Shown one piece after another: positions 40,311 to 55,640 of a stretch of 64,000 nucleotides of DNA. This DNA is from a bacterium. GTDB lineage: Bacteria; Actinomycetota; Acidimicrobiia; Acidimicrobiales; CATQHL01. The DNA is taken from contig JAPOVS010000056.1 of NCBI GenBank assembly GCA_026708055.1, positions 1 through 64,000 of the forward strand, written 5' to 3'. The notes below the pieces were generated by a model, which made no database searches, was not told where the DNA came from, and saw only the letters and a program-made list of their open reading frames with translations. Position 1 is the stretch's first letter. The number at the start of each line of letters is the position of its first letter. The translations under genes and the position numbers were made by a program.

Positions 40311-40380
40311 CGTCTTCTCACAGTGCTTGCTCCGGATCCGCGGTGCAGGCGTGTGGCGGGACCGCACCGACGGTGCCTGA

Positions 40381-40412: not shown

Positions 40413-40425
40413 TCGGCACCTTAGC

Positions 40426-40465: not shown

Positions 40466-40484
40466 AGACGCTAGGATATGAGCC

Positions 40485-41762
40485 ATGGACGGGCCGTTGA
40501 CGCCTGAAGGCTACCTGCGGAGGGTGGTGGACCGCGAGGTCGAGGCCGCGCTGGGCAGTTCTCCGGCGGTGGTGATCGAAGGGCCGAGGGCCTGCGGAAA
40601 GACGTGGACGGCTCGCAGGTTCGCCGCGAGCGCCGCCGCTCTGGACGAGTCCGACGACGCCCGCTTGGCGGCCGCCCTGGACCCTGGCGCGCTGCTTGGG
40701 GGCGACGCCCCCCGTCTGCTGGACGAGTGGCAGCTCGCGCCCCGCATCTGGAATCCCATGCGCCACGCCTGCGACCGGAGCGGCCGGCCCGGCCGGTTCA
40801 TCCTCACCGGCTCGGCCAACCCTCCCGACGACGCCACCCGCCACTCGGGAGCGGGAAGGGTGACGCGAGTCCGGATGCGGCCGATGTCGCTGTTCGAGTC
40901 GGGAGAGTCCACCGGCGCGGTATCGCTCGGAGGGCTGCTGAACGGGGAGCGCGCGGCGCCGAGCCGCTCCGACATGACCCTCGCCGAGGTCGTGGACCTC
41001 GTGTGCCGGGGCGGCTGGCCGTGGCTGCTGGACGCCCCTGTCCCGGACGCGCAGAGCCGGTTGCGCGACTACCTGGGCGAGATCGCCCGGACCGAGATCC
41101 CCCGATCGGGGGGGCCGGCGCATGACCCGGTGGGCGTGGGCAGGCTGCTCGTCTCCCTGGCCCGGAACGAAGCCACGAACGTCACCTACAGGACCCTTGC
41201 CGACGACGTCAGCGGAGGCACGGACGCCTCCACCCATCCCCGCACGGTCCGGCGCTATCTGGAGGCTCTCTCCCGGCTGTTCGTCGTCGAAGGCCTTCCT
41301 GCGTGGGCCCCGCACCTGCGTTCGGCCTCGCAGCTCCGGCGCACCGAGAAGCGCTACTTCGTGGACCCCTCGCTGGCGGTGGCAGCCTTGCGAACAAACG
41401 CCGGGCGGCTACGCGCCGATCTGGGCTTCCTGGGCTTGCTGTTCGAGTCTCTGGCCATGCGCGATCTCCGCGTGTACGCGCAGGCCAACGACGCCCGAGT
41501 GTTCTATTTCCGCGACAACGCCACCCTCGAGGTGGACGCCATCGTCGAGCGCGCTGACGGCGAGTGGATGGCCGCGGAGATCAAACTGGGGGGCGAAGCG
41601 CTGATACGCCACGGTGTGAAGAGCCTGCTGCGCCTCCGCGACAGGGTCGATGCGGCCCGGATGGGAACCCCCGCGGCCCTCCTGGTCATCACCGCCACCG
41701 GCTACGGCTTCCAGCATCCCGACGGCGTGGCGATCATGCCGCTCGGCGCGCTCGGCCCGTGA
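40485..41762 (+). CDS. DUF4143 AAA-type ATPase, copy 1
   Basis: 425 residues. Walker A GPRACGKT at 33-40, Walker B-like LLDEWQLAP, sensor ILTGSANP, then a winged-helix middle, then the DUF4143 C-terminal domain with LEVDAIVE and AAEIKLGG (D351, E365, K367), the D...ExK arrangement of PD-(D/E)XK nuclease-like folds. Such proteins are abundant and patchily spread; their function is not settled, with toxin or defence roles proposed. A close paralogue follows at 41962, and a C-terminal piece of a third lies at 48186. Confidence 0.88.
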   Translation: MDGPLTPEGYLRRVVDREVEAALGSSPAVVIEGPRACGKTWTARRFAASAAALDESDDARLAAALDPGALLGGDAPRLLDEWQLAPRIWNPMRHACDRSGRPGRFILTGSANPPDDATRHSGAGRVTRVRMRPMSLFESGESTGAVSLGGLLNGERAAPSRSDMTLAEVVDLVCRGGWPWLLDAPVPDAQSRLRDYLGEIARTEIPRSGGPAHDPVGVGRLLVSLARNEATNVTYRTLADDVSGGTDASTHPRTVRRYLEALSRLFVVEGLPAWAPHLRSASQLRRTEKRYFVDPSLAVAALRTNAGRLRADLGFLGLLFESLAMRDLRVYAQANDARVFYFRDNATLEVDAIVERADGEWMAAEIKLGGEALIRHGVKSLLRLRDRVDAARMGTPAALLVITATGYGFQHPDGVAIMPLGALGP

Positions 41763-41833
41763 GGCTCACTGATCTCGATGAGCCCCGACCGGCGGCCATC
41801 CCGGCCCGGCGACGGGGCCCGTCAGCCCTTGCG

Positions 41834-41961
41834 CCCGATACGGGCGCTCTGAGCGCTTCGCGGAGGCTCACGGTGCCCGGCAGGCAGGTGCTGTCGGCCA
41901 CGGGGGTGTCGGTCGACATTTTGGGTGTTCGCCACCCTAATTATTGGGGTACCATGATTCT
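41834..41961. other. Cassette border: CBS-gene 3' fragment fused to a DUF4143 promoter
   Basis: Read on the minus strand, 41834-41910 encodes PVADSTCLPGTVSLREAL, matching PVVDGTGLIGIVSLRDVL at the end of the CBS protein (48780-49160). It continues at DNA level through the CBS stop region (CGTCAGCCCTTGCG in both). The rest, from GGTCGACATTTTGGGTG on, contains a GGGTG-TTCGC-CACCC hairpin and leads to the DUF4143 start. The same border occurs at 48600-48717. Confidence 0.7.
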
Positions 41962-43272
41962 GTGAGCATTGAGCTTCCGGGCGAGTACTTGCCGCGGCTC
42001 TTGGACGGCAAGCTGCGGGAGGTGCTGCTGTTCTCGCCGGCGGTCGTCGTCGAAGGTCCGAGGGGGTGCGGCAAGACGACCACGGGCAGCCGAGCCGCGT
42101 CGTCGTTCTTGGCCATGGATGAAGTCGAGGTGGCTGGCGGGTCGCCCGGCGCGCTTCGCGGTCTGCTGGATCTGCCGCCGCCGCTGCTGGTGGACGAGTG
42201 GCAGGTGGCGCCGGGGCTGTGGAACGCGGTGCGGCGCGAGTGCGACCGGCGAGGGGGCGCGCCGGGCCAGTTCATCTTGACGGGCTCGTCCACGTTGCCC
42301 GACAACCCCATCCGCCACTCCGGTGCGGGCAGGCTGGCGCCGCTGCGGCTGCGGACGTTCTCGTCCTATGAGAGCGGCCTCTCCAACGGCTCGGTGTCGT
42401 TGGGGGCCATGCTGGGCGGGCTGCCGGTGGACGCGGCCGCGGAACGGGCGCTGTCCCGTCTGGAGTTGGCCGAGGCGATCTGTCGGGGGGGCTGGCCGGC
42501 TTCGCTGAGAATGCCTCTGGAGCAGGCGCTGCGGTACGTCGAGGCGTACGTGGATGCGATGTGCGGCATCGACATCCGGCGCCGCGCCGATGCGCTTCCC
42601 TATCGCAGCGTGGGCACTGCCCGGACGGTTCTGCGTTCCATTGCCCGGAACGTCGGAACGGCCGCGTCGGTGAGCGCCCTGGCTCGTGACACGGCGGCGG
42701 GCGAGATGGAGTCTCCTCTGGACCGCAAGACGCTGCCGGCGTTCCTCGACGCCTTCGAGAGGGTGTTCATTCGGGAGGACTGCCCGCCGTGGGGGTTCCA
42801 GCCCGCGTCGAAGAGGGCCATGCGGGCTCGGCCGAAGCGCTTCCTGTGCGACCCGTCGATAGCCACCGGGGTCCTGCGTGTCGCACCCCGACGCCTGGCG
42901 GGGGAGCCCGAGTTCATGGGCGGCGCGTTCGAGTCGCTGGTGATGCGAGACCTGCGGGCCTACGCCGACGTCAACGATGCCGAGGTGCGCTATTACGCCG
43001 AGAGCGGGTTCGAAGTAGACGCTGTGGTGGAGGATCGCGACGGGTCGTGGGTGGCCGTGGAGGTGAAGCTGAGCCGCAGTGAGCACGCGCTCGAGCGGTC
43101 CAAGCGGGCCTTGAAGCTGCTGGCGAAGAGGGCGCGGGAGGCGGGCAGGCGGCCGCCGTCCAAGCTGATCGCCGTCTTCGGCACCAACGCCCCCGGCGAG
43201 CACACCGGCCTGCGGATAGCCCACGAGACCGACGGCGTGGCCGTCGTGCCGCTCGCCGCGCTCGGCCCGTGA
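41962..43272 (+). CDS. DUF4143 AAA-type ATPase, copy 2
   Basis: 436 residues from GTG 41962; a TTG 18 nt earlier is possible but lies in conserved promoter-like DNA. Walker A GPRGCGKT at 32-39, LLVDEWQVAPGLW, FILTGSSTLPD, then a DUF4143 end with FEVDAVVED and VAVEVKLSR (D...ExK). It ends in VVPLAALGP, the same tail as copy 1 (IMPLGALGP). The two are related along their whole length but clearly diverged, so this is an old duplication or two separate arrivals. Confidence 0.88.
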   Translation: MSIELPGEYLPRLLDGKLREVLLFSPAVVVEGPRGCGKTTTGSRAASSFLAMDEVEVAGGSPGALRGLLDLPPPLLVDEWQVAPGLWNAVRRECDRRGGAPGQFILTGSSTLPDNPIRHSGAGRLAPLRLRTFSSYESGLSNGSVSLGAMLGGLPVDAAAERALSRLELAEAICRGGWPASLRMPLEQALRYVEAYVDAMCGIDIRRRADALPYRSVGTARTVLRSIARNVGTAASVSALARDTAAGEMESPLDRKTLPAFLDAFERVFIREDCPPWGFQPASKRAMRARPKRFLCDPSIATGVLRVAPRRLAGEPEFMGGAFESLVMRDLRAYADVNDAEVRYYAESGFEVDAVVEDRDGSWVAVEVKLSRSEHALERSKRALKLLAKRAREAGRRPPSKLIAVFGTNAPGEHTGLRIAHETDGVAVVPLAALGP

Positions 43273-43410
43273 CCTGCTCCGCTCTCCCAGGTCAAGGAGA
43301 TATTTCTCCACATGGCAAACCCTCCACATCCCAACCCATCGGTGGATTCAGGCTAAGATTCACACTGTGGCTTGCCGAGGTCGTATCCCGACCATGGAGG
43401 TGATTCACGA

Positions 43411-43575
43411 GTGACCGATGTTGAGCCGTGCTGCTCTGCCGCACCCTTCGGGCCGCCGGGGAGCCCGCAAGACGACCGCAGTGGCGGTCGTCTTGCGGGG
43501 CACGGCGCGCGTGACCGCCCTGCCGACCGTGCCGCCAACCTAGTAGGCAAGTTGTACATTGCCACTATCCTCTGA
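43411..43575 (+). CDS. Short ORF with Cys-Cys and a strong hairpin, upstream of the SDH-type proteinase
   Basis: 54 codons from GTG 43411, preceded by an excellent GGAGGTGATTCACGA site. It begins MTDVEPCCSAAPFG; the middle (PQDDRSGGRLAG) is dictated by a perfect 16-bp hairpin. The stop is 4 nt before the ATG of the proteinase gene, which lacks its own ribosome site, so translation may be coupled. It could be a true small protein or a leader peptide whose translation controls the hairpin. I do not recognise a family. Confidence 0.4.
   Translation: MTDVEPCCSAAPFGPPGSPQDDRSGGRLAGHGARDRPADRAANLVGKLYIATIL
43464..43499 (+). terminator. Perfect 16-bp hairpin, terminator or attenuator
   Basis: CCCGCAAGACGACCGC (43464-43479), loop AGTG, and the exact complement (43484-43499). 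No T-run follows, which is usual for actinobacterial terminators. It lies 190 nt after the DUF4143 stop and 80 nt before the proteinase gene, inside a short ORF, so it may end the first transcript, attenuate the second, or both. Confidence 0.65.
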
Positions 43576-43579
43576 TCCT

Positions 43580-44455
43580 ATGAGCACTTCAGCGCCAATT
43601 CCTTTACCTCCGACTACGCAGGATAGTGCTCGAGAATGGGCTGCAACCCGCCTTCAAGCGATCGAAGACATGCTTGATGCGGATGGACTCACAATCATCT
43701 CGCCGATGCAGGAAGGCGTAGAGCACACCGCCAAGGTCACGATTGAGGCTAGGGAAGAGCGTAGAAACACTCTGTTCGTGATTCTCGACACACCCGGTGG
43801 TGTAGTGGAAGTTGTTGAACGCATCGTGCGGGTCTTGAGAGAGCACTACTCGGAGGTCAAATTCATTATTCCGGACAGAGCGATGTCAGCGGGGACTGTA
43901 TTGGCTATGTCCGGCGATGAGATTATGATGGACTACCATTCTTGCCTTGGCCCCATCGACCCGCAGCTTGTACGGGACGATCGTTTAGTGCCCGCATTGT
44001 CGTATCTGGCTCAGTTCGATACTCTCATTGAGAAGAGCAAGAATGGCGCATTATCTACTGCTGAACTGATACTGCTGGAGAAACTTGATCTAGCAGAACT
44101 CCACCAGTTTGAGCTTCAACGCGATCTTTCTATTGAACTGCTGAAGCTCTGGCTTACGAACTATAAGTTCAAGGATTGGACCGAAACTGAAACTAGAAAG
44201 ATCCCGGTCACCATACAGATGAAGGAGGAGCGCGCCAGTGAAATCGCTCGGCAGCTGAGTGATCACACACGTTGGCTAACGCATGGACGGGGAATCGATA
44301 TGACGGCGCTTCGAAATGAACTCAGACTGAAGATCGACGACTTCGGCGAGAATCCTGAATTGAAGAAAGCTGTCTGGGATTACTTCTGGTTTTTGCGGGA
44401 TCACATGCTTAGGAACGGTATCACCTCGTTCGTTCACACACCTACGTTCTTCTAA
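43580..44455 (+). CDS. ClpP-fold serine proteinase of the SDH/SppA-like class
   Basis: 291 residues. The crotonase/ClpP-fold signature is complete: FVILDTPGG (oxyanion loop, 67-74), IIPDRAMSAGTVLAMSGDEI with the nucleophile Ser103, and a DYHSCLGPIDPQ segment (118-128). This matches the serine dehydrogenase proteinase family (SDH_sah). It has no membrane segment, and a long helical C-terminal part (LILLEKLDLAELHQFELQRDLS). GC content is near half by eye, much lower than the surroundings, so it is probably a recent transfer. Placed among restriction, DUF4143 and TA genes, a defence or toxin role is possible but unproven. Confidence 0.82.
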   Translation: MSTSAPIPLPPTTQDSAREWAATRLQAIEDMLDADGLTIISPMQEGVEHTAKVTIEAREERRNTLFVILDTPGGVVEVVERIVRVLREHYSEVKFIIPDRAMSAGTVLAMSGDEIMMDYHSCLGPIDPQLVRDDRLVPALSYLAQFDTLIEKSKNGALSTAELILLEKLDLAELHQFELQRDLSIELLKLWLTNYKFKDWTETETRKIPVTIQMKEERASEIARQLSDHTRWLTHGRGIDMTALRNELRLKIDDFGENPELKKAVWDYFWFLRDHMLRNGITSFVHTPTFF

Positions 44456-44476
44456 GTCGCGAAAGGACGGACAACA

Positions 44477-44713
44477 ATGGAACAGGAACATCTGAATGAG
44501 ATCATCAATCACAACCCCAACATCGATCGAACGGCTCTTGACCGCAGTCGTCAAGCGGCCAAGCAGCTTGAGGATGTGGGAATCAAGCTGGGTGGTTACC
44601 GTCTAATGCCTGCTCTCGGCGGCGTGATCATCAAGCACTCAGAGTGCCTTAGCGGGCAGCGCACTAGCGGTAACCAGCAGGGGTCATATTCTCAGACATC
44701 GACGAAATTCTGA
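44477..44713 (+). CDS. Small partner protein downstream of the ClpP-fold proteinase
   Basis: 78 residues, 21 nt after the proteinase stop with an AAAGGA site. An N-terminal helix (QEHLNEIINHNPNIDRTALDRSRQAAKQLEDVGI) is followed by a short GGYRLMPALGGVII strand and a polar Ser/Gln-rich tail. GC is low like its partner, so the two moved together. No known family; a substrate adaptor or inhibitor of the proteinase is a reasonable guess. Confidence 0.62.
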   Translation: MEQEHLNEIINHNPNIDRTALDRSRQAAKQLEDVGIKLGGYRLMPALGGVIIKHSECLSGQRTSGNQQGSYSQTSTKF

Positions 44714-44718
44714 CCGGC

Positions 44719-47700
44719 TTAGATCAGCGTCGTGTGGCCGGGTTTTGGCTTCCGTGTGGCTGCCGGGGCCTTCTTGGCCTCGGCCGGTACGGGCAGCACT
44801 TCGGTGGCGGTGAGGTCCTCGACGGTGATCTGCGGGCCGTCGATGATCGCTGCTAGCAGTTCCGACTGCTCGGGCTCCAGTGCTACGAGCGCGGTGAGGG
44901 CGTTGAGGATGTCGAGAAGCTCGATGTCCCACTCGGGACGCCAGCCGTCAGGTGCGATCGACTCCAGCGAGTCCGGGTCGCGGGTACCCGTTGCGGCCCT
45001 CCGGTAGTTGAACCAGGACCTGATGACGTTGGTGCCGGAGACTTCGTAGCCGTACACGTCCGGGGCGACGTTCTCGAACGCCCCGTCGCCGATGCGGAGT
45101 TCGCGCCGCTCAGCGTCGTAGGAGAGCGTACGGTTGCGGGTTCCCTCGCCCGTCTCGTGGCGCAAGCGAGGTCCGTTGTCGAGGCGAACCCGTCCAGCAG
45201 GGCGGCCATCGTCAGTGTCGACGTACCGTTCCCCGAACGTGTGCGCCCAGACGACCCGCCGACCGATCCCGACCGCCATCGACCAGTAGTCGTTGTCGGC
45301 TGTCAGGGGCACTCGCAGGCCCGGCGTGTACGGCGAGACCTCGTTGAGCCAGGCCGTGTAGGCAGGGTGGGCGCACACCCCAGCGATGTAGGCGAGCAAG
45401 TCCTCGGGTGCTATCTCCGTGCCGAGCAGCCCCCCAAGATGGTCGAGCAACTTGGGTGCGACGTTCGCGGTCGTGGCGCCGTTGTCGCGCCAGAGCGGGA
45501 ACGCGCGCCCGCCACGTCCGTGGTAGTGGTGCAAGCCGGGCAGCAAATGGGTGAACGTGACCGCCGGCCCGTTCTCGGGGTGGTCGTCCTGGATGCACGT
45601 CAGGTGGATCTGCCGGTCACTGCGCGCCTCCCATAGAGGCGGGCGGGGCACGTCGAGAACCCGTCTGTCGGCGATGATCCACTGACGGTCGAGTGATCGC
45701 CACGCGAAGCGGACCGGCGTCGGACACGGATTCCTCTCTCCGGAGATTGGGGTGGAGGCGTCGTACGGGCAGCCGGGAAGGTTGGCGTTGAACTTCCGGT
45801 GGATCGTCCTATCGCGGGTCTCCTTGAACAGGGCCTTCCTTCTTTCTTCATCCGCCTCTGAGACGAGTTCGCTCCAGCGTCGGTTGAGGGTTTGCGAATC
45901 CTGGGCGGTGGGCCACCCGCGGTTGGCCAGTACTCCCGGAGTAGACCAGGGAAGCAGGTCGTGAATCGACGGGCAGAAGCGCCAGACATCCTCACCAGCG
46001 GGTTTGAATGGCGCTCGCAATCTCCGAGGGCACCGAGCCCAGCCGAGCGCCCCATTGCCGCCGATGGCGATGGTCTCCAGTTCGGCGAACTTGGCGTTGC
46101 GGGTGCCCGGCGCGACCTCTCTGAACCAGACTGTCGCCGGTGTCTCGTCGGCCTCCGGCGAGCGGACTGCGCAGACGACGCTGATTTCGTGCTGGACACC
46201 TTCGAACATCCGGGTCGGCACGTCCGGCTGGTGGCCCTCGGGAGACAGCGAGACCACCCAGATCTCCGAGCACCGCTGCCGCAGCCAGGCGCGCATCTTC
46301 TGGAACCCGTCGCCGCTCAGCCACGCCGCGGTCGTGACGAAGCACACGACGCCGGGCGACTCCCCGCCGTCGTTGCCCGCGTTCTCGAGGACCTTCCAGG
46401 TCGCCCAGCGCCAGAAGTAGACCAGCAGGTTGGACATGTTGTAGATGTGGGCGGAGACGCCCCAGTCGGAAGGCGGCTTCCAATCGTCGAGGATGGGCGG
46501 CAGATCGGTGTTGGGATTCCCGCTCTCCACCCAGCCGCCGAGTCCCTTCGCTCGCTCCCGGTACGGAGGGTTGCCGATGGCGACCATGACGGGCGTCGTC
46601 GCCTTCAGGTGGTTGGCGGCGCGGCGTTCCCGGCTGATCGGCTCGTAGATCGACCCCAGCCGGACCTCCTCGGTGTAGGGGTCGGCCAGTGTGTCCGCCA
46701 ACAGCACCCGCGGCGCACGATCCACGCCGTGGCGGCGGAAACGCGCTCCGGTGCGGAACTGCGCCACGCTGTACGGCCCGGTCTGCAGCTCGAACCCGAC
46801 GAGCCGCTCAGCAGCGCCCCGCAGCGCACCGGCCACGGCCCCGGCGCCGTCGCGCTCCTCGACGGTGGAGGCGATGCGGTCAATGATCTGGAGCAGGAAC
46901 GTGCCGGTCCCCACGGCCGGATCGATGACCGTCACAGACTCTTCAGCGAATCCCGAGGGCTGGCCGAGTCGCGTTCTGAGCACCTCGTCCACCAGGCGCA
47001 CCATGAACTGCACCAGCTCGGCGGGGGTGTAGTACGAGCCCGATTCCTTGCGCAGGTCGGGGTCGTACTGGGCGAGGAAGTCCTCGTAGAAGTACAGCCA
47101 GTCGCCCGCGTCGTTCAGGAGCGCCGGGTCGGTGGCGGCGAGCAGCGCCAGCAGCGACTCGACGGCGGGCTCGATGGGCCCGATGGCGCTCTCGGCGCAC
47201 AGCACCCGCAGCGCCGTGGGGATCAGGCCCGCCTCGGCGTCCAGCGCCTTGGTCGCCCGCGCCACCCGCTCGGCAGCGCCGGCCCCCGCGGCGGCCGGTC
47301 CCGCCCCAGCGGAGAGTCGGGCCGCGGAGGCGCCGTCCGGAGTTGTGAGGCGGTCATCCTTCCCGGCCGCCTCGCCGGGGCACGCGGCGGCTTCAACATC
47401 CCCGGAGAACTCGGCCCCGGCGTCGCGGTCGGCGTCGGCGGTCAGCGCGGCGCCTGCGGCGCGAGCGGCGATCAACCCGAAGGTGATGGTCTGGGCGTAC
47501 GCATCGGCGAATTCGGCGTCGCTCGCCTCGGGGAACAGCAACGATCGCCAATCCTCGGCCACGGCTTCGAGGCCCTTCGATCCGCCGGACGCGAGGGCGC
47601 CGACGATCTGCTTGCGCAGCACCCGGCAGAGTCGGGCCGTGGTGCGGGCGAGTTCCTGGGCCGTCGCCGGGGCGTGCGCGGCGTCGGCGCAGAACGTGTC

Positions 47701-48189
47701 GATCAGATCAACCAGTTCGCCAGCGTCGATCCTGGCGCTCGTGATTCCCTTGCCCGGCGCGGTCCAGGCAGTCGCTCGGGCCACTTGCTGGTCGTCCTGC
47801 CACAGGATCCAGTCGATCCCGTCGCTGTAGAGCAGGTTCGGTAGGTGCCGCAGTTGCTGCCACTGGTCCAGGTTGTGGCCCGTGAACCCGTCAGGATCGA
47901 CTCCCGCACCGGGTGCCTTGAGTTCGATGTGCCCCATGATGAGCCCACCCCGCATCACGGTGTAGTCGGGCCGGGCGCCCGCAACCGCGCCGGAAATCTC
48001 CCCGGCCAGAACCAGCTTCGGGTGCCCCAGATCCTCCGCGACGGACTCCACCAGAGCCTGGACCGGCGCACGCAGGTGATCTTCCAGAGGCACGCCGTCA
48101 TTCGCGGCCGCTGCGGCAGCGACCTTCGTGCGGAGGTACGCATAGTGGCGCCCAGCGGTCTCGACAGCCGACGGCGTCTGGGAGGTCAT
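44719..48189 (-). CDS. Single-chain restriction-modification enzyme (type IIG/ISP-like)
   Basis: 1156 residues. The N-terminal nuclease domain has RPDYTV and GHIELKAPG (D75, E89, K91; PD-(D/E)XK type). An adenine methyltransferase core follows: SGSYYTPAELVQFMV, motif I DPAVGTGTFLLQI, motif IV IGNPPYRE. The C-terminal 450 residues are a target-recognition domain. It lacks the helicase domain of type ISP proteins, so it resembles type IIG enzymes. The ATG overlaps the stop of the DUF4143 fragment gene. It converges with the proteinase pair, with 5 nt between stops. Confidence 0.88.
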   Translation of the reverse strand: MTSQTPSAVETAGRHYAYLRTKVAAAAAANDGVPLEDHLRAPVQALVESVAEDLGHPKLVLAGEISGAVAGARPDYTVMRGGLIMGHIELKAPGAGVDPDGFTGHNLDQWQQLRHLPNLLYSDGIDWILWQDDQQVARATAWTAPGKGITSARIDAGELVDLIDTFCADAAHAPATAQELARTTARLCRVLRKQIVGALASGGSKGLEAVAEDWRSLLFPEASDAEFADAYAQTITFGLIAARAAGAALTADADRDAGAEFSGDVEAAACPGEAAGKDDRLTTPDGASAARLSAGAGPAAAGAGAAERVARATKALDAEAGLIPTALRVLCAESAIGPIEPAVESLLALLAATDPALLNDAGDWLYFYEDFLAQYDPDLRKESGSYYTPAELVQFMVRLVDEVLRTRLGQPSGFAEESVTVIDPAVGTGTFLLQIIDRIASTVEERDGAGAVAGALRGAAERLVGFELQTGPYSVAQFRTGARFRRHGVDRAPRVLLADTLADPYTEEVRLGSIYEPISRERRAANHLKATTPVMVAIGNPPYRERAKGLGGWVESGNPNTDLPPILDDWKPPSDWGVSAHIYNMSNLLVYFWRWATWKVLENAGNDGGESPGVVCFVTTAAWLSGDGFQKMRAWLRQRCSEIWVVSLSPEGHQPDVPTRMFEGVQHEISVVCAVRSPEADETPATVWFREVAPGTRNAKFAELETIAIGGNGALGWARCPRRLRAPFKPAGEDVWRFCPSIHDLLPWSTPGVLANRGWPTAQDSQTLNRRWSELVSEADEERRKALFKETRDRTIHRKFNANLPGCPYDASTPISGERNPCPTPVRFAWRSLDRQWIIADRRVLDVPRPPLWEARSDRQIHLTCIQDDHPENGPAVTFTHLLPGLHHYHGRGGRAFPLWRDNGATTANVAPKLLDHLGGLLGTEIAPEDLLAYIAGVCAHPAYTAWLNEVSPYTPGLRVPLTADNDYWSMAVGIGRRVVWAHTFGERYVDTDDGRPAGRVRLDNGPRLRHETGEGTRNRTLSYDAERRELRIGDGAFENVAPDVYGYEVSGTNVIRSWFNYRRAATGTRDPDSLESIAPDGWRPEWDIELLDILNALTALVALEPEQSELLAAIIDGPQITVEDLTATEVLPVPAEAKKAPAATRKPKPGHTTLI

Positions 48190-48527
48190 GGCTTCAGGGC
48201 GGTCAGGGGGGCCACGGCTATCCCGTCGTCGGTCTGGTAGCCGTGGCCGAACGCGGTCACGGCGATGAGGCGGGCCGGCAGGCCTCTCAGCGCGGCCACT
48301 GCGAGCGCAGGGTCGGCGAAGTACCGCTCAGCGCTCCTGCGAAGGCGGGGGGACGACCTCAAGTGGGCCGACCAGGCCGGCAGCGGCTCGATCGCGAACA
48401 TGCGGGCCAGTTCGTCCAGGTATGCGTGAATCGTGGAGCGAGCCGGCGGACCGTCGCCTCCGTCGGAGATGTCTGCAAGCAGCGTGGCGATTGTTGCGTT
48501 GGTCGCCTCTTGTCGGACATTCTTCAC
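48186..48527 (-). pseudogene. Internally deleted DUF4143 C-terminal fragment
   Basis: 113 residues from GTG 48527. It aligns with copy 1 from RNEATN...TLADDVSG through LPAWAPHLRS..LRR.EKRYFVDPSLAVAALR, here NEATIATLL-type, LPAWSAHLRSSPRLRR and ERYFADPALAVAALR, then jumps to AVTAFGHGYQTDDGIAVAPLTALKP, which is the very C-terminus. The ATPase part and the D...ExK part are missing. It remains open and coupled (ATGA) to the restriction-modification gene, so it may still be translated. Confidence 0.75.
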
Positions 48528-48596
48528 TTCACTTTACGGGAGTTTTAGACTTCATTTTTCGGGATTTCCGAACTACGTTTTTCGGAGAACTGAGAC
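48528..48596 (-). repeat. Three 23-bp direct repeats upstream of the DUF4143 fragment/RM genes
   Basis: Three units start at 48528, 48551 and 48574, exactly 23 bp apart, with cores TTCACTTTACGGGA, TTCATTTTTCGGGA and TACGTTTTTCGGAG. They directly precede the GTG at 48527 on the minus strand, in an AT-rich stretch, which suits a phased set of regulator sites and a promoter. Confidence 0.6.
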
Positions 48597-48599
48597 TCG

Positions 48600-48741
48600 G
48601 CGGATGTCGCGGAGGCTCGCGATGCCCCACAGGCCGGTGCTGTCGGTAACGGGTGGGCGTAGGTCGACTTTTTGGGTGTTCGCCACCCGAATTTTTGGGG
48701 TATCACGATTCTTTGCGCGTTTCGCCGCGCTCGGCCCCTGA
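48600..48741 (+). other. Second cassette border and scar of a deleted DUF4143 gene
   Basis: On the minus strand the first 60 nt encode PVTDSTGLWGIASLRDI, again the CBS protein's end. From GGTCGACTTTTTGGGTG it repeats the DUF4143 promoter of 41910-41961, up to GGGGTATCACGATTCT. Straight after, TTCGCCGCGCTCGGCCCCTGA gives the FAALGP-stop tail of a DUF4143 gene. Start and stop ends are joined with the whole gene missing. DNA after the stop also matches that after copy 1 (CCGACCGGCGG ... CGTCAGCCCTTGCG). Confidence 0.7.
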
Positions 48742-48779
48742 CTCCGACCGGCGGGGGGCGGGCTCGGGTGGCTGAAGCG

Positions 48780-49160
48780 TCAGCCCTTGCGGCCGATGCG
48801 GGCGCTGAGGACGTCCCGCAGGCTCACGATGCCGATCAGCCCCGTTCCGTCCACCACGGGGAGGTGGCGGAACCCTCCAGAGAGCATCATCTCCGCTGCC
48901 TCCTCGGTGTCGATCTCGGGGGAGCAGGTGATCGGCTCGGGGGACATCCAGCGTTCGATCTGGTCGACGGCCATGTCCCGTGCCTTGCCGGCGGCGCGCA
49001 GCACGTCGCGCTCGGTGAGGATGCCGCTGAGCATGGTGCCGTCCACGACGAGGACCGATCCGATGTGCCGACGCACCATGTGCCGGGCGGCCTCGGCCAT
49101 CGGCGTGGTGCCCGGCAGGGTCACCACCTCGGTGCTCATGACCTCCCGCACCGCGACCAT
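48780..49160 (-). CDS. Tandem CBS-domain protein
   Basis: 126 residues from ATG 49160, one base after the stop of the gene before it (TGACATG). Two CBS repeats: VREVMSTEVVTLPGTTPMAEAARHMVRRHIGSVLVVDG..SGILTERDVLR and a second ending HLPVVDGTGLIGIVSLRDVLSARIG. Stand-alone pairs like this bind adenine nucleotides as energy sensors, or act as DNA/RNA-linked regulators. Copies of its last codons are found at two DUF4143 cassette borders, so its 3' end seems to be the place where such cassettes joined the chromosome. Confidence 0.9.
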   Translation of the reverse strand: MVAVREVMSTEVVTLPGTTPMAEAARHMVRRHIGSVLVVDGTMLSGILTERDVLRAAGKARDMAVDQIERWMSPEPITCSPEIDTEEAAEMMLSGGFRHLPVVDGTGLIGIVSLRDVLSARIGRKG

Positions 49161-49161
49161 G

Positions 49162-49404
49162 TCAGCCCGAGCCGCCGGTCTCGTCGTAGCCGCTGCCGTC
49201 ACCCGGCTGCGAGGGCGTGTCGAGATCCTGGTTGAGGCGCCGCCACAGGGCGCCGGCCCATCCCACCGTGTGGGGCCACTCGCGCCAGAAGGACTGCAGC
49301 GTGGCGGCGTCGATCTCGTCGGCGGCCTCCTCGGGGGTCACCTCCCGCGCCAAGGACTCCAGCAGGCTCATTGCGTCAAGCAGCTTCTCGGACGGGTCGG
49401 ACAT
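49162..49404 (-). CDS. Small acidic hypothetical protein, co-transcribed with the CBS gene
   Basis: 80 residues from ATG 49404 with GGAGG 8 nt before it. Helical and acidic: SEKLLDAMSLLESLAREVTPEEAADEIDAATLQSFWREWPHTVGWAGALWRRLNQD, then a Gly/Ser tail. No motif recognised. One base separates it from the CBS gene, so they form an operon. Confidence 0.6.
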   Translation of the reverse strand: MSDPSEKLLDAMSLLESLAREVTPEEAADEIDAATLQSFWREWPHTVGWAGALWRRLNQDLDTPSQPGDGSGYDETGGSG

Positions 49405-49490
49405 CGCTGGCCTCCTGCCGAGAGTCTGCCACATGAGCCCGTCGGCGGAAACAGCGCGGCGCGCGTGGTCCGGTGCTAGAGTTCAAGGCA

Positions 49491-49547
49491 AGCGGGAGCG
49501 GCGCCGGCGCCCTACGGGGCGGCCGTATTGGCATCGCCGCTCCCGCT
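49491..49547 (-). terminator. Long hairpin between gene clusters
   Basis: AGCGGGAGCGGCG (49491-49503) pairs exactly with CGCCGCTCCCGCT (49535-49547). The 31-nt loop holds a further CGCCC-GGGCG stem, and CAAGG/CCTTG lie outside. It lies 79 nt after the carotenoid-oxygenase stop on the minus strand and before the small acidic gene, so a terminator is likely; a small structured RNA is possible. Confidence 0.5.
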
Positions 49548-49625
49548 CTGACCTTGGGCGTTACTCCAAGGCTGCGGCAACGCTAGTTGTTCGACCAGTC
49601 TTCCGGTACGTGGTCCGGCGGGCGC

Positions 49626-50948
49626 TCAGGCGCCGGCCGGCACCCAGGCGCAGTGGAACCCGTAGGGGACCCGGTTGGGGAGGGTCACCGTAGCGAGCGG
49701 TCCCGAACTGACGGCGTCGGCTGCCAGGATGACCACCTCGCTGCCGTGCCGCTCGGCGTCGTAGACGACGGTCAGCACGTAGCCCTCGTCCTCCTCGGCG
49801 CCGGCGTGGCGCGGCACGAACACCGCCTCGCTGGCGTAGCGGGCCGGTCCGAAGTGATGGTGCTCGCTGGTGTGTGCCACCAGGTCCAGGCGCACGACGC
49901 GGTGCCCGTGGGAGACGCTGCCGGTCTCCTCGTCCACCAGCGTGGTCACGTAGGCGTAGCGGTTGGGGCGCCCGAGGAGCCGCTCGTCGATGCGCGGGAA
50001 GTCGCAGCGCACGTCGAAGAGCGTCTCCTCGCGGACCGAGCCGTCGCCGAGCCCCAGGCTCCAGCGGTGCACCATGGCGGGCACGTCGAAGCGGTTCGAG
50101 GAGGTGCCCCAGAGGGAGTCGTAGCGGCAGGCGTCGAGGGTGATGCGCCCGAACATCTCGCAGGCGTTGACGGTGTGGAACACGTAGCAGGGGTCGATGT
50201 CGAACCACTGCACGTCGCCGCCGGCGCGGGCCATGACGCCGAGGCGGGCGCCGTGATCGGGGTCCCAGCGGTAGGGGAGCCCGCCGTTGGCCGCGGGATC
50301 CCACACCACCGGCAGGTCCATGAACACCACATGGTCGGACGTGACCGCGAAGTCGTGCATCATCACCGGCCGGGGCAGGTCGATCGTGGCGGTTCCGGCG
50401 AGCGTGCCGTCGCTGTCGAAGCGGAGATAGGTGAGCTGCGGTTCGACCTCGGAAGTGGCGAACGCCAGCATCTCGCCGGTGCGCGGGCAGATCTTGGGGT
50501 GAGCGGTGAGGTTGCGCACCGCGCCGCCGAAGTCGACGGGCCCGACGGTCTCCAGGTCGGAGGTGACCTCATACGGGCGGTGGCGCTCCTCGAGGGCCAG
50601 GATGCGCCCACCGTGGACCACCACGTTGGTATTGGCGGGCGAGTGGTCGGGGTCGTCGTGGTCGCCGTTGGACTCCGTCAGGCGGGGCGTGCGCACCCAG
50701 CGGCTGCGGTAGCGCACGGCTCGCCCGCCGCGCAGCAGCAGGCCGTGGAGCATTCCCTCACCCAGGAACCAGTGCGGCGAGTCGCCGCGGGGCGGGTTGG
50801 GGCCGGCATGGATCAGCATGCCGTGCAAGTCGGCCGGGATCCGGCCACGCACCGGCAGGTCGAAACCCTCGGTCTCGTCGGGGAGGGGGCCGTGGTTGCC
50901 CCGCAGCCACCAGGGCTTGCCCGCGTCCCCTGCACTCTTGTCGGCCAC
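49626..50948 (-). CDS. Carotenoid cleavage oxygenase family protein
   Basis: 440 residues from a GTG. The four Fe(II)-binding histidines are seen in LTAHPKI, VMMHDFAVT, YVFHTVNA and the C-terminal YGFHCAW. The RGRIPADLHGMLIHAGPNPP start is typical of the beta-propeller. Such enzymes split a double bond in carotenoids, stilbenes or lignin-like compounds with O2. No signal peptide. Alone on its strand; substrate unknown. Confidence 0.93.
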   Translation of the reverse strand: MADKSAGDAGKPWWLRGNHGPLPDETEGFDLPVRGRIPADLHGMLIHAGPNPPRGDSPHWFLGEGMLHGLLLRGGRAVRYRSRWVRTPRLTESNGDHDDPDHSPANTNVVVHGGRILALEERHRPYEVTSDLETVGPVDFGGAVRNLTAHPKICPRTGEMLAFATSEVEPQLTYLRFDSDGTLAGTATIDLPRPVMMHDFAVTSDHVVFMDLPVVWDPAANGGLPYRWDPDHGARLGVMARAGGDVQWFDIDPCYVFHTVNACEMFGRITLDACRYDSLWGTSSNRFDVPAMVHRWSLGLGDGSVREETLFDVRCDFPRIDERLLGRPNRYAYVTTLVDEETGSVSHGHRVVRLDLVAHTSEHHHFGPARYASEAVFVPRHAGAEEDEGYVLTVVYDAERHGSEVVILAADAVSSGPLATVTLPNRVPYGFHCAWVPAGA

Positions 50949-51119
50949 GATGGCGGGATACTAGCGACGTGCGGTGGGGCGCGCACCGCGCCTCGGCACA
51001 CGCTGTCTCACCCGGCGGGACTGTCCGCCGGGCCCTCGCGTCGGAGATTCCCGCTGCCGCCCGGACGGTCTCCCGTAGGCTCCGACGATGCTCCCTGCAG
51101 GCACCGGAGGGCGGCGCTG

Positions 51120-51839
51120 ATGAGCCCGGCGGAGATCGTCGCCGCGGTGGTGGTGATGGCCGTCGGCGCCGCGGTCCAGGGCAGCGTGGGGTTCGGGATG
51201 AACGTCGTGGCGGCGCCGATCCTGATCCAGATCGACCCCGACCTGGTGCCAGGCCCGCTGCTGGCGGCCTCGCTGGCGAACACGCTGCTCATTGCGCGCC
51301 GGGACCGCTCCGGGATCGACCGGTCGGCGCTGTCGTGGGCGCTCCTCGGGCGCGTGCCGGGGGCGGCGCTCGGAGCCTTCCTGCTCGTGGAGGTCTTCTC
51401 GGAGTGGGGGCTGTCGGTGTTCCTGGCGTCGGTGATCCTGGTGGGCGTGGCGCTGTCGGTCACCCCGGTCCGCCTGCCGCGCGGCCGATCGATCGTCGCC
51501 GTCGGCGGTTTCGTGTCGGGTGTCTCTGGAACCTCGACCGGTGTGGGCGGTCCGCCGCTGGCGCTCACCCTGCAGCACGTGGAGCCCCGCCGGCTGCGCG
51601 GCACGCTGTCGGTCTACTTCCTCCTAGCGGCGTCCCTCTCACTGGTGTTCCTGGCCGCGTGGGGGGAGTTCGGCACGACGCACCTGCTGGCAGTCGCGGT
51701 GCTTGTGCCGGGGCAGATCGTCGGGTATCTGCTGTCCGGGCGGCTCGTGGGGGTGCTCGACCGCGGCTACACGCGTCCCGCACTGCTGGCGATCTCAGTC
51801 GCCGCGGCTCTCAGCCTGCTGATCCGCGCCCTCCTCTGA
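51120..51839 (+). CDS. TSUP/TauE-SafE family membrane transporter
   Basis: 239 residues with seven to eight membrane helices. The N-terminal AVGAAVQGSVGFGMNVVAAPIL and the central GFVSGVSGTSTGVGGPPLALTL are the two family repeats. Members export sulfite, sulfoacetate or other sulfur-containing anions. It is the only gene on its strand between the carotenoid oxygenase and the oxidoreductase, so the substrate cannot be inferred. Confidence 0.88.
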   Translation: MSPAEIVAAVVVMAVGAAVQGSVGFGMNVVAAPILIQIDPDLVPGPLLAASLANTLLIARRDRSGIDRSALSWALLGRVPGAALGAFLLVEVFSEWGLSVFLASVILVGVALSVTPVRLPRGRSIVAVGGFVSGVSGTSTGVGGPPLALTLQHVEPRRLRGTLSVYFLLAASLSLVFLAAWGEFGTTHLLAVAVLVPGQIVGYLLSGRLVGVLDRGYTRPALLAISVAAALSLLIRALL

Positions 51840-51861
51840 ACCGCCCCCGCCGGCGGGCGCG

Positions 51862-52974
51862 TCAGGTCCGCTCGTCGATCTCGGTGGGCCGCACCGAGCG
51901 GTTCTCGGCCGCAGAGAGATAGGCCGCGTGCACGAGGCGCAGAGTGTGGAGGTTGTCGCGACCGCTGGTGGGCGGCTCGGTGTCGTCGTTGATCGCACTC
52001 ATCAGCGAGGAGATCGGCCCGACGAATCCCTCGGGGATCCAGCGCCCGGGCAGCTCGGTCTCGAAGCCGCCGCCGGGGTCGTCGTGCGCCGACCAGCGGA
52101 CGGTGTCGGCGCGGCCGTGGGGGTAGTCGTAGGAGAGCCCCATCGTGCCCGAGGTGACGCCGTCGGTGCCCAGGACGCGCACCCGCCCGAACACGTCGTC
52201 GCTGACATCGTTGTGATCGACAGCCACGAAGGCCTGCAAGCCGGAGGCGTAGTCGAGGACGGTGACCGTCTGCGTCTCCGCGCTCGGCGCCTGCGACGGC
52301 TGGCGGGTGTGCCGGCTCGTGACCCACTCCGGCTCGCCGTGGGCGCCCAGCAGGAACCGCATGCCGTCGAGGTAGTGGATGCTGTGGTACATGACCTCCA
52401 GCTGAGGCACCTTCATCAGCCAAGGCCAGAACTCCCACGGATTCACCAGGGATTCGTGCACGAACGCGGCTGTGGGCGTGCCGATCCGGCCCTGCGCCAT
52501 CAGCGTGTGCATCGCCCGGATGACCGGGCTCCAGCGGTACTGCTGGTTCACGGCCAGCTTGACCCCTGCCGCCTCGGCCCGCTCGACGATCTCGACGGCT
52601 TCGGCGAAGTCGTCCGACAGCGGCTTCTGGCACAGCAGGTGCTTGCCGCCGTCAGCCAGCGTGCGAACCAGTTCGAGTTGCCGCCAGGCGGGCACGGCGA
52701 TGTCCGCGATCTCCACCGAGGGGTCGCCCGCGACCTCCGCCAGCGAGCCGAAGACCCGCTCGACGCCCCACTGCTCCGCCGTGCGCCGTGCCGCTGCTGG
52801 ATCGATGTCGTAGCACCCCACCACGTTCAGCCCGTGCGACGTGTAGGCCGGCAGGTGCCCGTCGTTGGTGATCCCACCGCAGCCCACGATGGCGATGCCG
52901 TGGTCGTGGCGCTCGGGAAGCCACGAACGTGTGTCGAGGCCGAGAGCGGCCGGGTCGGGGGCGGTAGTGTCCAT
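51862..52974 (-). CDS. Gfo/Idh/MocA family oxidoreductase
   Basis: 370 residues from ATG 52974. N-terminal Rossmann motif GIAIVGCGGITNDGHLPAY; catalytic EKP-type motif is QKPLSDD (CQKPLSDDFAEA), with Gln in place of the usual Glu; MYHSIHYLDGMRFL holds the expected His. The enzymes oxidise sugars or related polyols with NAD(P). The start was moved 18 nt inside the longest frame because TATAAT lies 6 nt before this ATG. Confidence 0.87.
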   Translation of the reverse strand: MDTTAPDPAALGLDTRSWLPERHDHGIAIVGCGGITNDGHLPAYTSHGLNVVGCYDIDPAAARRTAEQWGVERVFGSLAEVAGDPSVEIADIAVPAWRQLELVRTLADGGKHLLCQKPLSDDFAEAVEIVERAEAAGVKLAVNQQYRWSPVIRAMHTLMAQGRIGTPTAAFVHESLVNPWEFWPWLMKVPQLEVMYHSIHYLDGMRFLLGAHGEPEWVTSRHTRQPSQAPSAETQTVTVLDYASGLQAFVAVDHNDVSDDVFGRVRVLGTDGVTSGTMGLSYDYPHGRADTVRWSAHDDPGGGFETELPGRWIPEGFVGPISSLMSAINDDTEPPTSGRDNLHTLRLVHAAYLSAAENRSVRPTEIDERT

Positions 52975-52980
52975 AGTGTA

Positions 52981-53010
52981 ATTATATGTCAATCAGTACT
53001 ATTTGGTCAA
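52981..53010 (-). promoter_or_regulatory. Sigma-70-type promoter giving a nearly leaderless message
   Basis: Minus strand TTGACC (53010-53005), 18-nt spacer, TATAAT (52986-52981), then six bases to the ATG of the oxidoreductase. Transcription would begin at or within a few bases of the start codon. The hicA gene starts on the other strand 21 nt beyond the -35 box, so binding by HicB-like proteins could affect both. Confidence 0.65.
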
Positions 53011-53031
53011 TGAAGCGCACAGGAGGGGCCT

Positions 53032-53289
53032 GTGACTCAGTTCGAGAGAGCTCAGGCGATGATCGCGCGGTGGCGGAGGAGTCAGACGGGCGTGCGCTTC
53101 TCCGACCTGGCGAAGGTGTGCCGCCTATACTTCGGTGAACCTCGTCGCAGGGGTGGCCATTTGATCTTCCGAACATCTCTGAGGGGCACGCCGATCGTGA
53201 ACATCCAGGACCACGACGGGGAGGCGAAGCCCTACCAGGTGCGCCAAGTCTTGCGGGCGATCGCCCTCAAGGAGAACCCAGATGGATGA
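53032..53289 (+). CDS. hicA: HicA-like mRNA interferase toxin
   Basis: 85 residues from GTG 53032, with AGGAGGGG close upstream. The double-stranded RNA-binding-like fold and catalytic His are seen in RRRGGHLIFRT (H43), preceded by the helix FSDLAKVCRLYFGEP and followed by IVNIQDHDGEAKPYQVRQVLRAI. HicA cuts mRNA and tmRNA during stress. It overlaps the next gene, its antitoxin, by 8 nt. Confidence 0.85.
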   Translation: MTQFERAQAMIARWRRSQTGVRFSDLAKVCRLYFGEPRRRGGHLIFRTSLRGTPIVNIQDHDGEAKPYQVRQVLRAIALKENPDG

Positions 53290-53533
53290 GCCCTGCTACG
53301 AGTATCGCGCCTTCTGGTCCACCGAGGATGACGCCTGGGTTGGACTGTGTGACGGGTTCTCTCTGGTGAGCCACCTGGCACCCACCGAGGCAGAAGCGCT
53401 CGACGGCATCCGCTCTCTCGTGTCCGACATCGTGGACGACCTGCGCTCCGATGGTGAGCCGTTGCCGCGGGCGGTCCGCTGGGAGGAGCGGGAGGCCGCA
53501 CATCTCGCCGGGCCGGCTGTTCGGAGCAACTGA
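53282..53533 (+). CDS. hicB: HicB-like antitoxin, short form
   Basis: 83 residues. The degraded RNase H-like HicB fold is seen: YEYRAFWSTEDDAWVGLCDGFSLVSHLAPTEAEALDGIRSLVSDIVDDL. The C-terminal DNA-binding domain found in many HicB proteins is missing, so operon autoregulation would need another protein or the HicAB complex. Together with hicA this is a complete toxin-antitoxin pair. Confidence 0.82.
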   Translation: MDEPCYEYRAFWSTEDDAWVGLCDGFSLVSHLAPTEAEALDGIRSLVSDIVDDLRSDGEPLPRAVRWEEREAAHLAGPAVRSN

Positions 53534-53583
53534 CCGCCTGTTCCGCGGCGGTCGCCCATCAGAGGAGTCGTTGGGGAGGGGCC

Positions 53584-54366
53584 ATGAGCCAGGGAATGTT
53601 CGAGGGGCGCAACGCCTTCGTGACCGGGGCGGCGAACGGGATCGGCCGCGGCATCGCGCTGCGCTTGGCGTCTGCGGGTGCCGCGCTGGCGCTGAACGAC
53701 ATCGACGCCGCAGCCCTCGACGCCGTTGTCGCCGAGATCCGCGATGGCGGAGGGCACGCCGTGGGTTGTCCCGCTGACGTGTCGTCGCCCGCGGCGGTGC
53801 GGGCCGCCGTCGCCGAGGCGATCGATGCGCTCGGACCGCTCACGCTCGGCGTGACCTCCGCCGGAATCGTCGAGATCGTCCCCGCCCTGGAACTCACCGA
53901 GGAGGCCTGGGACCGGATGCTGGGCATCAACCTGAAGGGCACGTTCTTCACCCTGCAGGCGCTGGCCCGCCACATGATGGCGGGCGACGGCGGCCGTCTC
54001 GTGGCGATCGCCTCGATCGGCGCCAAAATCGGCCGTGCCGACGCCGTCGACTACACGGCGTCCAAGGCCGGCGTGTCGAGCGTGGTGCGGTCCCTCGCCC
54101 TGGCGCTGGCCCCGAAGGTGCAGATCAACGCGGTGTGCCCCGGCGTCGTCGACACCGCCATGACACCCAAGATCCACAAGGCCCGTGCGGAGAAGGCCGG
54201 GATCACCCCCCAGGAGTCGATCGACGCGCTGGTGGCGACGATCCCCATGGGGCGCATCCAGACGCCCGACGACGTGGCCCGGTCGGTGCAGTACTTCCTC
54301 AGCGATGCGGCCGACTACGTGACCGGGCAGGCGCTGAACGTCGACGGCGGGATCATCTTCCACTAG
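53584..54366 (+). CDS. Short-chain dehydrogenase/reductase
   Basis: 260 residues, classical SDR length. TGAANGIG cofactor motif, ALNDID after strand 2 (NAD(H)-type), the NNAG position reads TSAG, catalytic Ser in IASIGAK and YTASK with the proper spacing, and a C-terminal YVTGQALNVDGG. GGGGAGGGGCC lies before the ATG. It probably oxidises a hydroxyacid or sugar derivative with NAD. Confidence 0.92.
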   Translation: MSQGMFEGRNAFVTGAANGIGRGIALRLASAGAALALNDIDAAALDAVVAEIRDGGGHAVGCPADVSSPAAVRAAVAEAIDALGPLTLGVTSAGIVEIVPALELTEEAWDRMLGINLKGTFFTLQALARHMMAGDGGRLVAIASIGAKIGRADAVDYTASKAGVSSVVRSLALALAPKVQINAVCPGVVDTAMTPKIHKARAEKAGITPQESIDALVATIPMGRIQTPDDVARSVQYFLSDAADYVTGQALNVDGGIIFH

Positions 54367-54516
54367 CTGGTTCCTCGTTCAGGAGGGCCGCCTGCGCGGC
54401 CCAAACCTGCGAGTCCGGCGATGCCGTGAAGCGGGCATCTCCCGCTCGCTTGGGGGGCGATGCCGCAACGGCTATACATGTCCCCGTCCGTGCGCCTCGT
54501 CGAAGGGGAATCAGCC

Positions 54517-54969
54517 ATGCTCTGCGGCACCCATCACGTCGGTTTCACCGTGCCCGATCTGGACCGTTCGGTGGCGTTCTACTCGGCCCTGTTCGAGACC
54601 GAGCCGTTCATCAAGGCCGTCTTCGACAAGCCGTACACGGCCGAGCAGATCGGCTACCCCGGCGCCCGGCTCTACATCGCGCTGTTCCACATTCCCGACT
54701 CGACGGTGCTGCTGGAGCTGATCGAGTACCTGGAGCCGACAGGCGAGATGGTGGACGTCGAGTCCAAGAACCCCGGCACGGCGCACCTCTGCCTGTCCTC
54801 GACGGACCTCGCCGCGGACTTCGAGCGCTTCACCTCACTCGGCGCTGTGCCGCGCAGCAGGGGCCCGGTGACGATCACGCACGGGCCCAACAAGGGCAAG
54901 CGCGTCGGCTACTTCCGCGACCCCGACGGCATCACCCTCGAACTCCTGGAGGTCCCGCCGGTCGAGTGA
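54517..54969 (+). CDS. VOC-superfamily (glyoxalase/bleomycin resistance fold) protein
   Basis: 150 residues from ATG 54517, selected because AAGGGGA precedes it and the fold starts at once (THHVGFTVPDLDRSVAFYSALF). Metal ligands by position are the His in HHVGF, Glu in LLELIEYLE, His in GTAHLCLSS and Glu in ITLELLE. Members are isomerases, lyases, epimerases and dioxygenases. It follows the SDR on the same strand by 150 nt. Confidence 0.85.
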   Translation: MLCGTHHVGFTVPDLDRSVAFYSALFETEPFIKAVFDKPYTAEQIGYPGARLYIALFHIPDSTVLLELIEYLEPTGEMVDVESKNPGTAHLCLSSTDLAADFERFTSLGAVPRSRGPVTITHGPNKGKRVGYFRDPDGITLELLEVPPVE

Positions 54970-55078
54970 CCCGGCCCGGCGGCCCCCCGTGGTGCGCCCG
55001 CGCCCGTGTATGACCTGGGCGGACCGGTTGCACGTCCGGCGACGCCCCGCGGGCTCACCCGCGGTACAGTGATACCTG

Positions 55079-55366: not shown

Positions 55367-55372
55367 CCGCCC

Positions 55373-55636: not shown

Positions 55637-55640
55637 ACGC

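What the first reader, a model, noticed from the sequence alone, without database searches (positions are those of the whole stretch)
48600..48741. Apparent precise scar of an excised DUF4143 gene
Promoter DNA matching that before copy 2 runs up to the place where the start codon should be, then 20 bases later the DUF4143 tail (GCCGCGCTCGGCCCCTGA) and its downstream spacer follow. Start-proximal and stop-proximal ends are joined almost exactly, which is unusual for random decay and suggests loss through short repeats or an excision process.
Basis: seen in the sequence. Interest (0 to 1): 0.55.

Follow-up and report, generated by a model that had tools for sequence, protein, structure and literature searches.

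The report
Deletion remnant keeping a 23-bp repeat array
The spot is the leftover of a gene for a DNA-related ATPase that was lost by an ordinary deletion, and the control DNA left behind belongs to a so far seemingly undescribed kind of repeat array, spaced every 23 bases with a different motif for each gene, that precedes this gene family in many bacteria.

Summary
At 48607-48779 lie a fragment of the neighbouring CBS gene's 3' end, the upstream region of dufB (window copy 2), nine start-proximal bases and the last 20 bases of dufB, followed by the spacer and the intact CBS gene. About 1282 of 1311 bp are missing. A relative (G003) has the start of dufB on the homologous left flank, and G005 has a half-filled version at the same site. 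So the gene was there and was lost. I found no sign of precise excision: dufB deletions in congeners have different ends, the window junction shows no microhomology, and other DUF4143 genes in the genus also carry internal deletions. An ordinary internal deletion is the best reading.

The surprise is what the scar keeps. Genes of the AAA_14-DUF4143 family (PADLOC candidate PDC-S01) are often preceded by a direct-repeat array with a fixed 23-bp pitch and a motif private to each gene. Of 63 unrelated significant upstream regions, 35 have period 23 and 9 have 46; downstream controls gave 2 at 23 among 123. In a later set, 13 of 13 dufB-class genes showed it. The scar retains two units. Function is inferred, not shown.

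The parts
48607..48653 (.). Fragment of the 3' end of the CBS gene (second, partial copy), left of the lost gene
   Evidence: the repeat finder family D1, 85% to 41858-41904 and also matching the intact CBS 3' end at 48814-48860
48655..48712 (+). Retained upstream (operator/promoter) region of the lost dufB copy
   Evidence: D2, 85% to 41904-41970; 50/57 against null maximum 29
48665..48699 (+). Two units of a 23-bp-period direct repeat: CGACTTTTTGGG at 48665-48676 and CGAATTTTTGGG at 48688-48699
   Evidence: offset 23 ranks first of 24 offsets in the scar; 12 of 500 shuffles reach the score
48713..48721 (+). Start-proximal stub of the lost gene (TTG in place of GTG, 9 nt)
   Evidence: chimera alignment to dufB, left breakpoint +9
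48722..48741 (+). Stop-proximal tail of the lost gene, TCGCCGCGCTCGGCCCCTGA
   Evidence: 19/20 to dufB tail, 0 of 8702 control windows reach it
48742..48779 (.). Spacer between the lost gene and the CBS stop codon
   Evidence: sequence; alignment A4
48780..49202 (-). Intact CBS-domain gene used as synteny anchor
   Evidence: Pfam CBS 8.6e-33; orthologs 80-88% identical in 5 of 7 congeners
41962..43272 (+). dufB (copy 2), intact AAA_14-DUF4143 gene, the full-length counterpart of the scar
   Evidence: Pfam DUF4143 4.8e-26 and AAA_14 1.6e-9; PADLOC PDC-S01 1e-57
41820..41955 (+). CBS 3' fragment plus upstream region of dufB, same layout as left of the scar
   Evidence: D1, D2, D6
40485..41762 (+). 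dufA (copy 1), intact AAA_14-DUF4143 gene with its own 23-bp repeat upstream
   Evidence: Pfam; period 23, 0 of 200 shuffles
48186..48527 (-). dufC, a decayed third DUF4143 gene with a 5' and an internal deletion
   Evidence: 84% and 91% to two separated parts of the full-length gene in G004
48526..48599 (-). 23-bp-period array upstream of dufC
   Evidence: period 23, 0 of 500 shuffles

Best explanation
The site is a decayed DUF4143 gene (a second dufB) that lost about 1282 bp by an ordinary internal deletion. Its upstream control region, nine bases of start and twenty bases of tail were left between a duplicated CBS 3' fragment and the intact CBS gene. Likely order (inferred): a dufB copy stood next to the CBS gene early in the genus; with an intact paralog about 5 kb away it was no longer needed and was lost by illegitimate recombination, in a region where DUF4143 genes come and go. 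What stays behind is the gene's upstream array of 23-bp-spaced direct repeats. Arrays of this pitch, with a motif private to each gene, precede many members of the family (shown) and most probably are binding sites for each gene's own AAA+ protein (inferred, not tested).
For: Observation statistics. Filled left half in G003:C162 on the homologous flank (94.5% to dufB over 236 bp, contig then ends) and half-filled site in G005 (start fused to the last 52 codons, then spacer and CBS). A different dufB deletion in G004 at the left position; upstream region only in G006; tail only in G007; no DUF4143 gene but a leftover array in G002. Other remnants with both ends kept: window dufC, G005:C187, G005:C237, G003:C186 (weak 5' match), G007:C109. 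Arrays: 129 genes, 73 significant, 43 at 23 and 9 at 46; downstream control 123 regions, 11 significant, 2 at 23. Collapsed to unrelated upstream sequences: 63 significant clusters, 35 at 23 and 9 at 46. Later set: 13 of 13 dufB-class genes at 23 or 46.
Against: Three known left ends of dufB deletions lie within about 15 nt of the start codon (window +9, G005 +6, G006 near the start) and three right ends within about 25 nt of the stop (window -20, G004, G007), tighter than uniform breakpoints would give; shared ancestry and small numbers may explain it. The window junction has no visible microhomology. Ku was not found in the genome (0 of 1), so classical end joining is not the likely route. 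dufB's own upstream array in the window is not significant by the repeat test (15 of 200 shuffles, best period 58), though offset 23 ranks first in 5 of 6 dufB upstream regions.
Confidence: 0.85

Rival explanations
1. Precise excision of a gene cassette by a recombinase acting on the gene ends.
For: Start and stop ends joined within 29 nt; several breakpoints in relatives lie near the gene ends.
Against: Ends differ between G004, G005 and the window; no common terminal repeat at the junction; internal partial deletions also occur in other DUF4143 genes.
Confidence: 0.05
2. MITE-like deletion derivative of a mobile DUF4143 cassette whose termini are the upstream array and the tail.
For: Both termini kept while the middle varies; dufB-type upstream regions lie at two positions relative to the restriction-modification gene in different species.
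Against: In its own genome the scar sequence matches well only itself and copy 2; all other hits are 45 nt or shorter. No target duplication or terminal inverted repeat was seen; the CBS fragment accompanies the copies as a local duplication.
Confidence: 0.07
3. A selected end state: the array is kept on purpose, for instance as a binding-site decoy for the paralog's protein.
For: Gene-less arrays also stand at the CBS site of G002 and G006; the repeat in the scar scores at least as well as in copy 2.
Against: The scar upstream region has diverged about 15% from copy 2, no more conserved than flanks between species (81-93%); retention follows trivially when a deletion starts inside the gene.
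Confidence: 0.1

Closest known systems
Bacterial pseudogene remnants made by internal deletion (illegitimate recombination, replication slippage)
   Same: Loss of most of a redundant gene, ends kept, breakpoints vary between strains, short or no microhomology
   Different: Unusually complete: 29 of 1311 nt remain
PADLOC PDC-S01 / Pfam AAA_14 + DUF4143 (COG1373, label recalled) ATPases
   Same: dufA and dufB match PDC-S01 (1.6e-65, 1e-57) and both Pfam domains; 47 DUF4143 matches in this genome
   Different: No description of upstream repeat arrays was found for this family in the papers searched
Iteron and multi-site operator arrays (Rep iterons, DnaA boxes, Orc1/Cdc6 sites; recalled)
   Same: Directly repeated sites at fixed pitch near a gene for a AAA+ or Rep-type DNA-binding protein
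   Different: Here the pitch (23 bp) is constant over much of the family while the motif is private to each gene; binding is untested

Membership tests
AAA_14-DUF4143 (PDC-S01) gene, for the lost gene | Tail and upstream DNA homologous to an intact AAA_14-DUF4143 gene | tested here: met
   19/20 tail, 50/57 upstream; intact counterpart has both domains; G005 half-filled site
AAA_14-DUF4143 (PDC-S01) gene, for the intact counterpart | PD-(D/E)XK-type C-terminal part with conserved E-x-D and E-x-K | tested here: met
   invariant E351, D353, E367, K369 in A5, 15 sequences; model of dufB (mean pLDDT 73.5) resembles restriction-like folds over the C-terminal part, e.g. 2vld_B Z 7.0, rmsd 3.4, 100 aligned; Z under 8 is weak by itself
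Precise site-specific excision scar | Same breakpoints in independent cases | tested here: not met
   +9/-20 and +6/-155; G004 +194 and last codons (for the left end, by inspection for the right end)
Precise site-specific excision scar | Matching short repeats at the two gene ends | tested here: not met
   no shared bases at the window junction between the two parental contexts, with copy 2 as stand-in for the parent
MITE or mobile cassette | Dispersed copies sharing both termini | tested here: not met
   own-genome DNA search: scar and copy 2 only, rest short
MITE or mobile cassette | Terminal inverted repeats and target-site duplication | tested here: inconclusive
   none reported at length 25 or more around the scar in 40000-56000; shorter ones not searched
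Iteron-like or multi-site operator array | Directly repeated units at constant pitch next to the gene | tested here: met
Iteron-like or multi-site operator array | Bound by the product of the adjacent gene | not testable with these tools
   needs a binding assay

The most novel reading that the evidence does not exclude
Across several bacterial phyla each AAA_14-DUF4143 (PDC-S01) gene carries its own self-recognition array: direct repeats at a pitch fixed by the protein family (23 bp for most, perhaps 32 bp for another branch) with a sequence unique to each gene, so that protein and array co-diverge while the geometry stays constant, as if an AAA+ oligomer assembles along DNA in 23-bp steps on its own promoter. 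When the gene decays the array is left behind as an orphan, as at this scar.
Probability: 0.55. Interest if true: 0.78.

Novelty: new variant of a known kind. Interest (0 to 1): 0.55.

Why it matters
As a scar the site is ordinary and only shows how fast DUF4143 genes turn over in this lineage. The array it preserves matters more. PDC-S01 is reported as the fourth most common defence across prokaryotes, with experimental validation pending for most such candidates (passages read in PMC12988326). A private array at a fixed pitch gives a concrete, testable handle on what these proteins bind, and it lets decayed members be recognised from their control DNA alone.

Tried and rejected
Chance match of the tail: rejected. 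Search of the own genome for further scars: only copy 2. Tail-like short hits on other contigs (C22, C59, C18, C2): fetched (L183-L187), no DUF4143 homology found around them. Ku for end joining: not found. Hairpin in the dufB upstream region as deletion trigger: folding z-scores -1.1 (copy 2) and -0.8 (scar) are unremarkable, G005 -3.0; not pursued. Clustering of left breakpoints near start codons over all remnants: dropped as an argument, because remnants were found mostly through the C-terminal domain model and had to lack the ATPase domain, which forces the left end to lie early. Structure comparison gave no full-length relative: Foldseek best E 3.1e-4 with TM 0.21, VIA best Z 8.3, McrBC chain 6hz4_M, 129 aligned, rmsd 3.4; sequence search of the Protein Data Bank found none for dufB and only weak P-loop hits for the profile. 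A winged-helix domain could not be established from the model.

Counting notes. One search used too strict a gene filter outside the genus (7 phylum and 3 plasmid genes) and was replaced; 8 loci gave no gene. In one search a few genes are counted more than once because truncated copies in other loci differ at the end (dufB as window, L047 and L170; L052 repeats L081 and is listed under phylum); collapses by upstream similarity and is the safer count. Of 129 genes 56 had no significant array, dufB of the window among them; of 19 loci, L339 repeats L336, L344 is close to L306 and L345 to L307 (same species, similar motifs); without these, 10 of 10 in the dufB class; of the 6 others only L350 (23) and L351 (22) are at or below 4 of 200. 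In one search the G005 slice is shifted and shows 19 as best period. One search placed the short right part of the G004 remnant at -168; I read its tail instead. Part of the output was cut; L177 and L181 could not be classified with certainty.

Papers: 10 searches. DUF4143 occurs in 1 paper and PF13173 in 1 (listings only); the searches joining these themes with direct repeats gave 0. Only passages of PMC12988326 were read.

Full report
What is there. The window belongs to contig C56 of a 3.9 Mb draft genome; the named contigs of its congeners are metagenome bins, two of them labelled Acidimicrobiia. Two intact AAA_14-DUF4143 genes lie at 40485-41762 (dufA) and 41962-43272 (dufB). Both match PADLOC candidate defence PDC-S01, and a type IIG/ISP restriction-modification gene lies at 44719-48189. 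A CBS gene lies at 48780-49202 on the minus strand. Left of it, 48607-48741 repeats the layout found before dufB: a CBS 3' fragment, then the dufB upstream region, then, in place of the gene, 9 nt of start and 20 nt of tail. The match statistics exclude chance.

Filled and empty versions. I searched 7 congeners (8 genomes with the own one). CBS orthologs were found in 5 of 7. G005 has, at the same place, the dufB upstream region with GTGAGC fused to the last 52 codons of dufB, then spacer and CBS. G003 has no CBS hit, but its contig C162 ends with CBS fragment, upstream region and about 46 codons of dufB, 94.5% identical to copy 2 over 236 bp; its left flank (a piece of the restriction gene and of the dufC array) is that of the scar position, not that of copy 2. 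G007 keeps only a tail at the CBS gene. G004 and G006 carry the dufB upstream region at the left position; in G004 codon 65 is fused to the last codons of a tail, in G006 the gene is gone from about its start. G002, the nearest relative in the flank tree, has no DUF4143 gene there. The gene was thus present in the genus and has been lost in several different ways.

Mode of loss. Breakpoints relative to dufB are +9/-20 in the window and +6/-155 in G005; in G004 the left end is +194 and the right end lies in the last codons. Microhomology is about 3 nt in G005, about 6 nt in G004 and none in the window (inspection). Ku is not found. Other DUF4143 remnants of the genus also keep both ends: window dufC with two deletions, G005:C187 (start plus about 14 codons fused to about codon 200), G005:C237 (array fused to about codon 355), G003:C186 (weak 29-nt upstream match fused to about codon 276), G007:C109 (about codon 100 fused to about codon 324). 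Others keep only the 3' part as far as I could see (L172, L173, L174, L176, L255, L258). These were found mostly through the C-terminal domain, so ratios of end types mean little.

What the scar keeps. Looking at the upstream DNA of intact relatives I saw short direct repeats before many genes. The best period was 23 bp in most of 38 genes, each with its own motif; shared upstream sequence was seen in 8 of 11 pairs with proteins at least 70% identical, in 1 of 191 pairs at 50-70%, and in none of 467 below 50%. A broader test over periods 8-80 with dinucleotide shuffles used 129 genes (78 labelled genus, 45 phylum, 6 plasmid): 73 were significant at 4 or fewer of 200 shuffles, 43 with period 23 and 9 with 46. 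The same test on downstream regions gave 11 of 123, two at 23. In an earlier control, upstream regions of 80 other open reading frames gave 7 significant, none at 23 or 46. Collapsing related upstream regions leaves 63 significant clusters, 35 at 23 and 9 at 46; of 103 clusters in all, 45 have a significant 23 or 46. In the class with a dufB-like P-loop, 33 of 52 genes are significant, 30 of them at 23 or 46. A small other class (ARQVGKTWL) has 4 of 6 significant, 3 at period 32.

Later test. Loci fetched after the 23-bp hypothesis was formed (viral contigs, phage records, further plasmids; 19 loci) gave period 23 or 46 in 13 of 13 genes of the dufB class, each at most 1 of 200 shuffles; 10 of 10 after removing near-duplicates. 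The six of another class gave 23, 23, 22, 44, 23, 22, two of them at or below 4 of 200. Records with a period near 23 include Collinsella, Bacteroides ovatus, Prosthecochloris, Actinomyces, Lentilactobacillus and Spartinivicinus.

Back to the scar. The scar upstream region holds CGACTTTTTGGG and CGAATTTTTGGG 23 bp apart (12 of 500 shuffles). Offset 23 ranks first of 24 in five of six dufB upstream regions and third in window copy 2, where the array alone is not significant. The dufC array left of the scar has period 23 (0 of 500), and gene-less arrays of that type stand at the CBS site of G002 (period 67, that is 23+21+23 by inspection) and G006 (46). Arrays can outlive their genes here.

Mechanism. 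Shown: presence, pitch and private motifs of the arrays, their position close upstream of the gene, and the domain make-up of the proteins (AAA_14 plus a C-terminal part with E-x-D and E-x-K, restriction-like in the predicted model). Inferred: that each protein binds its own array as an AAA+ assembly and controls its own gene. The anti-phage role of the family is a database candidate status, not shown here.

Verdict. The scar is real, the loss is real, and an ordinary deletion explains it best. The lasting interest lies in the fixed-pitch arrays, for which I found no description in the searches listed; that is a limited search of open papers.

Noticed in passing
L284-L331 and plasmid/viral loci L306-L351, upstream of DUF4143 genes: 23-bp-period direct-repeat arrays with gene-private motifs precede many AAA_14-DUF4143 genes in several phyla; a separate branch (ARQVGKTWL P-loop) shows 32 bp in L304, L305 and L317 (L316 also best at 32 but not significant).
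   Followed up: partly
L082 and L084 at the CBS 3' side: Orphan 23-bp-type arrays (ACTCCACTTTGCGGAGATTTC-like units) without a DUF4143 gene.
   Followed up: partly
window 41820-41904 and 48607-48653: Partial duplicates of the CBS gene 3' end stand directly before dufB-type upstream regions, as if a block of CBS end plus DUF4143 gene had been duplicated in tandem.
   Followed up: partly
window 40053-40314: Short remnants resembling parts of the type IIG/ISP restriction gene upstream of dufA, suggesting an older duplicated and deleted block.
   Followed up: no
G000 whole genome: 47 DUF4143 matches in 3.9 Mb against 5 each in the congeners G002 and G004 (completeness 91-94%): strong difference in family size within one genus.
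   Followed up: no
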